Shown: positions 4,654-5,839 of the stretch, in pieces
Numbering within the stretch: position 1 is the first letter of the stretch
Layout: the number at the start of each line of letters is the position of its first letter
DNA from: Anaerolineales bacterium
Lineage (GTDB): Bacteria; Chloroflexota; Anaerolineae; Promineifilales; Promineifilaceae
Direction: 5' to 3'
Assembly: GCA_020432595.1 (NCBI GenBank)
Contig: JAGQGA010000372.1
Coordinates: 1 to 5,839, forward strand
DNA length: 5,839 nt
Program-made: the position numbers and the translations under genes
The notes under the pieces: model-generated
The model's database searches: none
Seen by the model: only the letters and a program-made list of their open reading frames with translations
What the model was told of the DNA's origin: nothing

Positions 4654-5193
4654 TTAACCGCCTTGCAGCAGCGAGAGGACGGTGGAAACGGCCGTTCTAT
4701 CCGTCGGTTCATAGCTGGGGTGCGCCAACTGAATACGGCCGTTGGGGTCAATGACAAAATCCCCGCCAAGCTGGCTGGTGTCTCCCCGCTTGCCAAAAGT
4801 TTCCCGCCCTTGCCACTTTGCCCTTGCATAATAGCGCAAATTTTGCACGCTCCAGGCGCGGCGAACTGAAGTATCCAACCCATAGGCGCGGTAGGCAACG
4901 CGCTCCACATCAAGCAGCAGCGGAAAGGGAGATTGGGTTTCTTGCAGCCAAATGGGTGCCCATTGGGCTGGGCCAAAGGAAACGGTGACAACGTTGGCGT
5001 TGGCCGCCTGAATTTGTGCGGAATGGGCCACAACCTGGGCCACATGATCGCGGCAGGGAAGTCAGGCCAGGTGGCGCAGGAAGATGAGGTGGAGAAAACG
5101 GCCGTTTTGCCAAAAAGAGGAGAGGGGAACAGAACGGCCGTTTAGCGTCTGTAGGCTAATGTCTGGAGCCTGTTTGTTTTTAAAAATAGCCAT
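4654..5193 (-). CDS. Peroxiredoxin-like selenoprotein (SelU/PRXL2-type), in-frame TGA at 5064-5062 read as Sec
   Basis: Read through one TGA, this is a complete 179-residue thioredoxin-fold protein. The N-terminus carries K-Q-A-P-D-I-S-L-Q-T-L-N-G-R (7-20) and VPLSSF (22-27). Next come strand FLHLIFLRH (33-41) and the active site A-U-L-P-C-R-D-H-V-A-Q (43-53). Then follow NVVTVSFG (67-74), FPLLLD (90-95), YRAYGL (101-106) and the late block GDTSQLGGDFVIDPNGRI (137-154). Family members (AhpC/TSA-like, PRXL2/FAM213, SelU) carry C-x-x-C-R-E/D-H; here codon 44 is TGA and Cys47 is kept, so U44 would be the attacking residue and C47 the resolving one. The role would be thiol-dependent reduction of peroxides or another redox substrate in the cytoplasm. 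ATG 5193 is the only start that includes the family N-terminus; no good Shine-Dalgarno precedes it. Elsewhere here TGA ends genes (2412-2410, 5283-5281), so it is not globally reassigned. The alternative is a nonsense mutation or sequencing error, but both flanks are in the same frame and intact. Confidence 0.85.
5018..5051 (-). promoter_or_regulatory. Candidate bacterial SECIS element
   Basis: Numbering from the base after the TGA, GGCC (21-24) pairs with GGCC (33-36). C25 can pair with G31, with U32 bulged, leaving loop AGGUU (26-30), close to AGGUCU of E. coli fdhF. Below are U20-A38, G19-U39 and A17-U40 with a bulged U18 and C37, then GCG/CGC (11-13/42-44). The loop lies about 26 nt from the UGA, within the spacing reported for bacterial SECIS. 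The hairpin is inside the coding sequence, as expected in bacteria. Folded by eye, so details are uncertain. Confidence 0.55.
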
Positions 5194-5203
5194 AAGGATT
5201 ACC

Positions 5204-5274
5204 AACAGGTAACAAGTTGCAAGTGGCAGGTCGCTGACCCATCATGGTTTGTTACCTGCCGCCTATTACTTGCT
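5204..5274. repeat. Opposed 7-bp tandem repeats forming a large intergenic hairpin
   Basis: On the minus strand four contiguous heptamers follow the pattern ACYTGYH: ACCTGCC (5231-5225), ACTTGCA (5224-5218), ACTTGTT (5217-5211) and ACCTGTT (5210-5204). On the plus strand the facing arm has ACCTGCC (5254-5260), GCCTATT (5261-5267) and ACTTGCT (5268-5274). CAGGTAACAA (5206-5215) and TTGTTACCTG (5249-5258) are a perfect 10-bp inverted pair; GGCAGGT/ACCTGCC (5225-5231/5254-5260) is an alternative pairing. It fills the gap between the phosphatidyltransferase stop and the selenoprotein start. Confidence 0.75.
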
Positions 5275-5280
5275 ACATCA

Positions 5281-5839
5281 TCATGCCAAATGGTGTCGCG
5301 CCCAAACCAGCCGCTGCCCAATGGTGATTAGTACCAGCAGCCCCATGAGAACAAACAGCCATACGAGATAGGACGGAAAGAACATAAAAGCGGTATAGAA
5401 AATGATGGTTTCCACGCCACCAATCAGACCCGTGGGCATGGCAATGGTGGTTAGGCGGTTGCTGTGGGCTAATTTGCGCTTTTCCAAAATGGCGGCCAAG
5501 TACATCCACGAGGCTCCGTTAATGTAGAAGCTGCTGAGAAGGAAGATGAGGGCGAGATAAACGGCCGTTTCCCCCCGCCCCAGTGCCAGCCCCGCCGGAA
5601 TCGCCGCATAGACCACGAAATCAACGATGATGTCGAGGTAGCCCCCAAAATCACTCTGCTTGCCGCACTGCCGCGCCACCGCCCCATCCAGCCCATCAAA
5701 CACCCGATTGAGAAACCACAGGCCAAATCCCAACGCATATTGCTGCTGCCATAATGCCGCCGCCGCCAGCAGCCCCACCAACAGCCCCGCCGCCGAGAAG
5801 AGCCACGGGGAAACACTTTGCAGAAGTTGTGCCAGCGGG
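5281..5839 (-). CDS. CDP-alcohol phosphatidyltransferase, 5' end outside the window
   Basis: At least 185 residues are visible, ending at TGA 5283-5281; the frame is open to the window edge, so the start is missing. The complete family signature D-G-x2-A-R-x8-G-x3-D-x3-D is present as DGAVARQCGKQSDFGGYLDI plus IVD, about residues 51-73 of the visible part. Its aspartates bind the metal and the CDP group. It is preceded by SVSPWLFSAAGLLVGLLAA, which corresponds to the family's first helix, and followed by four or more membrane helices. The enzyme moves a phosphatidyl group from CDP-diacylglycerol to an alcohol (glycerol phosphate, inositol, serine or similar) at the cytoplasmic membrane; the acceptor cannot be told from this fragment. 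It lies 87 bp upstream of the selenoprotein gene on the same strand. Confidence 0.92.
   Translation of the reverse strand, partial: PLAQLLQSVSPWLFSAAGLLVGLLAAAALWQQQYALGFGLWFLNRVFDGLDGAVARQCGKQSDFGGYLDIIVDFVVYAAIPAGLALGRGETAVYLALIFLLSSFYINGASWMYLAAILEKRKLAHSNRLTTIAMPTGLIGGVETIIFYTAFMFFPSYLVWLFVLMGLLVLITIGQRLVWARHHLA

What the first reader, a model, noticed from the sequence alone, without database searches (positions are those of the whole stretch)
4654..5193. Unannotated selenoprotein: peroxiredoxin-like protein with TGA at the first active-site cysteine codon
Seen: upstream of the frame most callers would accept (GTG 5043 onward) the same frame continues through L-P-C-R-D-H, hits one TGA (5064-5062), and continues for 43 more codons that match the family N-terminus up to ATG 5193. 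Known: PRXL2/SelU-type and related AhpC/TSA-like proteins have C-x-x-C-R at this point, and SelU of fish has U-x-x-C. Inference: the TGA encodes selenocysteine, giving U44-x-x-C47. A random nonsense mutation landing exactly on the catalytic cysteine codon with both flanks intact is unlikely.
Basis: partly seen in the sequence, partly recalled or inferred. Interest (0 to 1): 0.92.

Follow-up and report, generated by a model that had tools for sequence, protein, structure and literature searches.

The report
Selenocysteine-containing peroxiredoxin-like redox protein
A bacterial gene that software cuts short at a stop-like codon very probably makes a complete redox protein with selenocysteine in its active site; its family is already known, so this is a sound correction rather than a new kind of protein.

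Summary
In detail: one minus-strand frame (5193-4654) with a single in-frame TGA (5064-5062) at residue 44 of a 179-residue AhpC/TSA-type protein. The TGA is no lone mutation: in 80 related genome loci this codon is TGA in 79 and TCA in one, and both flanks are under purifying selection. Of the 120 protein relatives listed, 118 are 124-145 residues long, as expected of gene calls starting after the TGA; the two full-length ones have Cys there. A covarying hairpin follows the UGA in 55 relatives; the window's own version forms only 6 of 9 pairs. SelB is over cut-off in 73 of 78 carrier genomes; in one other class, in 31 of 34 TGA carriers against 65 of 164 others. UGA44 therefore almost certainly encodes selenocysteine (U44-L-P-C47). 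The family is already curated (NCBIfam NF040769, 'SelL-related redox protein'): a new member of a known kind. Least expected: a CDP-alcohol phosphatidyltransferase gene directly upstream, also in 29 of 80 loci. The window's own genome is not held, so its Sec machinery is untested.

The parts
4654..5193 (-). selenoprotein gene, 179 codons plus TAA, read through one TGA
5062..5064 (-). TGA codon 44, inferred selenocysteine
   Evidence: TGA in 79 of 80 loci; Cys in P0029 and P0089
5053..5055 (-). TGC codon 47, the only cysteine, inferred resolving residue
5023..5045 (-). candidate SECIS-like hairpin (loop AGGUU), 6 of 9 pairs formed in the window; unproven here
   Evidence: covarying counterpart in 55 relatives
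5041..5043 (-). GTG at which conventional gene calling starts
   Evidence: closest database protein P0002 (129 aa) begins here
5281..5838 (-). CDP-alcohol phosphatidyltransferase gene (5' end beyond the window), 87 nt upstream of the ATG
   Evidence: PF01066; homologue directly upstream in 29 of 80 loci

Best explanation
The gene encodes a 179-residue thioredoxin-fold selenoprotein of the SelL-related/Prx-like group. Shown: the UGA at codon 44 is a conserved codon inside one gene under purifying selection, its column is Cys in full-length homologues, and most carrier genomes encode SelB. Inferred: SelB with Sec-tRNA decodes UGA44, helped by a hairpin just downstream, giving U44-L-P-C47. Inferred: the selenolate of U44 attacks a peroxide or disulfide, C47 resolves it as an intramolecular selenenylsulfide, and a thioredoxin-type donor reduces it (the protein has no other cysteine). 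Weakly inferred: the conserved upstream CDP-alcohol phosphatidyltransferase links it to membrane lipid metabolism, for example reduction of lipid peroxides.
For: TGA in 79 of 80 loci found through patterns downstream of that codon; 118 of 120 listed database relatives have the length of truncated calls and 19 of 19 whose starts were aligned begin after the TGA; purifying selection on both flanks; covarying hairpin in 55 relatives, score reached by 0 of 500 shuffles; selB over cut-off in 73 of 78 carrier genomes and both selB and tRNA-Sec over 60 bits in the genomes of the ten closest loci G001-G010; in the class of G243, selB in 31 of 34 TGA carriers against 65 of 164 others, p 1.3e-8; confident model, pLDDT 95.3; U44/C47 align with CxxC of thioredoxin-family proteins.
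Against: The window's genome is not held, so the machinery is untested there. The window's own hairpin is weak (6 of 9 pairs; energy z -0.43) and no Rfam family reaches its gathering score in the window. Five of 78 carrier genomes lack selB over cut-off (G015, G018, G145, G221, G222); G145 also lacks tRNA-Sec at E <= 1e-10. In the class of G001 the co-occurrence test is not significant (24 of 27 against 104 of 123, p 0.41). selA and selD were not searched. Enzyme activity and the lipid link are inference only.
Confidence: 0.94

Rival explanations
1. Pseudogene or sequencing error: a Cys codon mutated or misread as TGA in this one contig.
For: A single base separates TGC or TGT from TGA; no own genome to compare with.
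Against: The same TGA in 79 of 80 loci, nearly all from different assemblies, and dN/dS below 1 on both sides.
Confidence: 0.02
2. The real product is the short 129-residue protein starting at GTG 5043, and the upstream part is not translated with it.
For: Gene callers choose it; P0002, 96% identical over the covered part, is stored that way.
Against: The 36 codons before the TGA are under purifying selection (dN/dS 0.18-0.58) and carry invariant F38, R40, H41; PF00578 matches from residue 7 on; without the upstream part the core strand and active-site loop of the predicted fold are missing.
Confidence: 0.02
3. TGA is reassigned (to Trp or Gly) in this organism, or read through by an ordinary tRNA.
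For: None specific.
Against: The column is Cys in the two full-length homologues; relatives' genes of this family often end in TGA; selB and tRNA-Sec occur in relatives; the neighbouring phosphatidyltransferase frame in the window ends in TGA.
Confidence: 0.01

Closest known systems
SelL-related redox protein, NCBIfam NF040769
   Same: Read-through product scores 143.4 bits against a cut-off of 120 over residues 7-174.
   Different: Nothing tested separates it; it is a Sec (UxxC) member of this model. SelL proper has UxxU (recalled; the 2007 paper is not held).
Prx-like thiol:disulfide oxidoreductase selenoproteins (PF00578, UxxC or UxxU) as listed in PMC13188914 Table 1
   Same: Pfam family and UxxC motif.
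   Different: Whether the review's representative belongs to the same subfamily was not tested.
Human prostamide/prostaglandin F synthase (PRXL2 group; that name recalled)
Canonical peroxiredoxins (AhpE, Bcp)
   Same: Same fold; C47 aligns with the AhpE cysteine of its TxxC.
   Different: U44 stands where AhpE has the Thr, and R40 where AhpE has the Pro, of the PxxxTxxC motif (motif roles recalled).

Membership tests
SelL-related redox protein (NF040769) | Score over the curated cut-off of 120 bits | tested here: met
   143.4 bits, profile 1-171 of 173
SelL proper | UxxU diselenide motif (recalled) | tested here: not met
   Window has U-L-P-C; 11 of 80 loci do have TGA at both positions
Bacterial selenoprotein | Conserved in-frame UGA at a column that is Cys in other homologues | tested here: met
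   TGA in 79 of 80 loci; Cys in P0029, P0089
Bacterial selenoprotein | SECIS hairpin just downstream of the UGA | tested here: inconclusive
   Covarying hairpin in 55 relatives; in the window 6 of 9 pairs, energy not unusual
Bacterial selenoprotein | selA, selB, selC, selD in the same genome | not testable with these tools
   No genome held for the window. In relatives: selB in 73 of 78, tRNA-Sec over 60 bits in 35 of the 39 tested; selA and selD not searched
PRXL2/SelU group (AhpC-TSA_2) | PF13911 over gathering score | tested here: met
   45.6 bits against 27, but PF00578 scores higher, 58.9
PRXL2/SelU group | Orthology to animal PRXL2/SelU | not tested
   No tree was built; only fold similarity to human PGF synthase
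Canonical peroxiredoxin | PxxxT/SxxC catalytic motif (recalled) | tested here: not met
   R40-H-L-A-U44-L-P-C47; U44 on the Thr and R40 on the Pro of AhpE

The most novel reading that the evidence does not exclude
In Anaerolineae-type Chloroflexota this selenoprotein is a dedicated redox partner of a membrane CDP-alcohol phosphatidyltransferase pathway, for example a selenium-dependent reductase of lipid peroxides or of a redox switch in phospholipid head-group synthesis, encoded in a conserved two-gene operon.
Probability: 0.2. Interest if true: 0.55.

Novelty: new member of a known kind. Interest (0 to 1): 0.36.

Why it matters
A redox family whose members here are almost always Sec-containing is stored in databases cut off at its own active site, so annotation and proteomics searches miss its catalytic half. 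Correcting it adds a widespread selenoprotein to uncultured Chloroflexota and, by record titles, to several other phyla, and the conserved neighbour gives a first functional lead.

Tried and rejected
Own-genome test for the Sec machinery: not possible. Viral contigs: 7 stretches matched a pattern, none encoded a relative. Rfam on the window: 0 matches at gathering score; tRNA scan: 0. Folding energy alone: mean z -0.68 over 81 sequences, window -0.43, so stability by itself does not show a SECIS. The window's minimum-energy hairpin (columns 11-38) is 88.5% paired in its clade but has no double changes and no advantage over shuffles; I prefer columns 20-42, which is only moderately supported: one control, the structure slid by +2, scores higher on covariation (0.141 against 0.115) and on cells changed on both sides (6 against 4). 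RNAalifold on the same clade proposed a third structure without compensatory changes. Rows left out of the hairpin alignments: L014, L065, L070, L072-L074 and L076-L080 (11 of 80 loci).

Co-occurrence around G001 is uninformative because selB is common (128 of 150, p 0.41); I counted only long matches with E <= 1e-25 there and left out weaker ones, mostly shorter; the three of these I opened are other Prx-like groups with TGA. In the class of G243, 45 genomes have tRNA-Sec but no selB at E <= 1e-70, 42 of them non-carriers; leaving those 42 out, the contrast remains (31 of 34 against 65 of 122, p 2.2e-5), and with 'selB or tRNA-Sec' as the trait it is 34 of 34 against 107 of 164 (p 2.6e-6). 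The genomes are related, so these p values are not those of independent draws.

Literature, held library only: 'SelL-related' with 'selenoprotein' gave 0 papers; 'selenoprotein' with 'CDP-alcohol phosphatidyltransferase' and 'operon' 0; 'highly iterated palindrome' with 'Chloroflexi' 0; prostamide search 0. Listings seen but papers not opened: (six of its seven), and ten of the twelve. PMC13188914: 12 of 18 passages and two of three parts of section 7. PMC1794560, PMC2398784, PMC2874816: passages only.

Full report
What is there. The minus-strand frame from ATG 5193 to TAA 4654 is open except for one TGA at 5064-5062. Read through, it has 179 residues, with F38-L-R-H-L-A-U44-L-P-C47-R around the active site; C47 is the only cysteine. 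It matches PF00578 (58.9 bits) and PF13911 (45.6 bits), both over their gathering scores, and the curated NCBIfam model NF040769, 'SelL-related redox protein' (143.4 bits, cut-off 120).

The TGA is conserved. A protein search gave 428 relatives at E <= 0.001. Of the 120 listed, 118 are 124-145 residues long, the length expected when a gene caller starts after the TGA, and two (P0029, P0089) are full-length. In an alignment of 22 of these proteins, window included, all 19 short ones begin at or after residue 45, and both full-length ones have Cys at 44. A scan of genome contigs found 123 loci encoding relatives, of which the best 80 were kept. Codon 44 is TGA in 79 of 80 and TCA in L068; codon 47 is TGC or TGT in 67, TGA in 12 and TAC in one (79 rows, L011). 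The search patterns lay downstream of the codon, so they did not select for TGA. L013 and L015 come from one assembly and L018 and L054 from one contig, so the loci stand for 78 genomes. Most titles are Chloroflexota; others name Poribacteria, Gammaproteobacteria, Bacillota, Planctomycetota, Actinomycetota, Acidobacteria and Myxococcales (record titles only). In the family of G001, 18 of 52 genomes carry the gene at E <= 1e-30; of the 19 matches, 16 hold one TGA and 3 hold two. The window against L001-L009 shows dN/dS of 0.18-0.58 before and 0.10-0.26 after the TGA.

Decoding machinery. The window's genome is not held. Among the 78 carrier genomes selB is over the cut-off in 37 of 39 and 36 of 39. 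The exceptions are G015, G018, G145, G221 and G222; G018 has a partial selB match that starts at a contig end, and G015 and G018 have tRNA-Sec at 69.7 and 68.8 bits. tRNA-Sec was sought in the first 39 of these 78 and exceeds 60 bits in 35; the other four have selB. G001-G010, the genomes of the ten closest loci, have both. G145 counts against the reading: it has a TGA copy (L046) but no selB and no tRNA-Sec; I cannot tell whether the assembly is incomplete. selA and selD were not searched.

Co-occurrence. In the class of G243, 96 of 198 genomes have selB. TGA carriers have it in 31 of 34, all others in 65 of 164 (one-sided Fisher p 1.3e-8); genomes with only TGA-less versions have it in 3 of 8. 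Every TGA carrier there has selB or tRNA-Sec. The contrast survives removal of 42 non-carriers that have tRNA-Sec without selB (p 2.2e-5). In the class of G001 it is not significant: 24 of 27 long TGA-containing carriers against 104 of 123 (p 0.41).

SECIS. In 55 of the 80 loci, aligned without gaps from the UGA, a hairpin with a four-base loop (mostly AGUU) lies 26-29 nt after the UGA. RNAalifold gives its five core pairs, four of them with compensatory changes. The seven-pair version is 84.4% paired and its covariation score was reached by 0 of 500 shuffles. In the window's clade (15 sequences, window included) the corresponding helix has loop AGGUU, is 76.3% paired and has two doubly changed pairs; the window forms 6 of its 9 pairs and its local energy is ordinary (z -0.43). 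I recall that the E. coli fdhF SECIS loop also contains AGGU; that is not a test. The window's own SECIS is inconclusive.

Neighbourhood. A CDP-alcohol phosphatidyltransferase gene (PF01066) ends 87 nt before the ATG on the same strand. Its homologue lies directly upstream on the same strand, with gaps of about 11-168 nt, in 29 of 80 loci, or 28 of the 75 with at least 600 nt of upstream sequence; it is absent upstream in 47 of those 75, including L007 and L010 of the window's clade. No NCBIfam cut-off is reached; the best partial match is archaetidylinositol phosphate synthase (60 bits against 180). A functional link is a hypothesis.

Compared with what is known. Prx-like selenoproteins with UxxC or UxxU are in Table 1 of a 2026 review (PMC13188914, passages and two of three parts of section 7); NF040769 is not in the parts I saw. 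SelL is named as a Prx-like selenoprotein in the GOS paper (PMC2398784, passages), and a 2006 survey lists Prx-like thiol:disulfide oxidoreductase selenoproteins (PMC1794560, passages). What is added here is this member, the scarcity of Cys forms in its branch, the truncated database copies and the conserved gene pair. That is a new member of a known kind, with one modestly novel lead.

Noticed in passing
whole window, e.g. 144-153, 654-663, 4687-4696, 5097-5106, 5133-5142: The palindrome ACGGCCGT occurs 15 times in the window (about 0.13 expected from base composition), 14 of them as AACGGCCGTT. It occurs at 1.1-2.3 per kb in L001-L012 but 0-0.08 per kb in the eight other loci counted (L013-L016, L048, L050, L070, L072): a highly iterated palindrome that marks the window's clade.
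   Followed up: partly
class of G243, e.g. G256, G262, G268, G276, G288: 45 of 198 genomes have a tRNA-Sec match over the cut-off but no selB match at E <= 1e-70, many of them about 1 Mb or smaller. A divergent or missing SelB was not looked into.
   Followed up: no
window 5194-5283 (-): The stretch between the phosphatidyltransferase stop and the selenoprotein ATG folds into a long hairpin (-31.7 kcal/mol, z -3.16; 1 of 200 shuffles as good).
   Followed up: no
L068 around 6109-6120; L058 around 6112-6123: L068 has TCA at codon 44 and TGA at codon 47 (S-x-x-U); L058 has TGA at 44 and TAC at 47 (U-x-x-Y). Single cases, possibly errors.
   Followed up: no
L081, L082, L083: Weaker matches of the same model in Chloroflexota genomes are other Prx-like proteins with an in-frame TGA (U-P-F-C in L081 and L082, U-M-Q-C in L083).
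   Followed up: partly
L053, L057, L059, L061-L064, L069, L071, L075, L077: Eleven loci have TGA at both codon 44 and codon 47, the SelL-like U-x-x-U arrangement.
   Followed up: no
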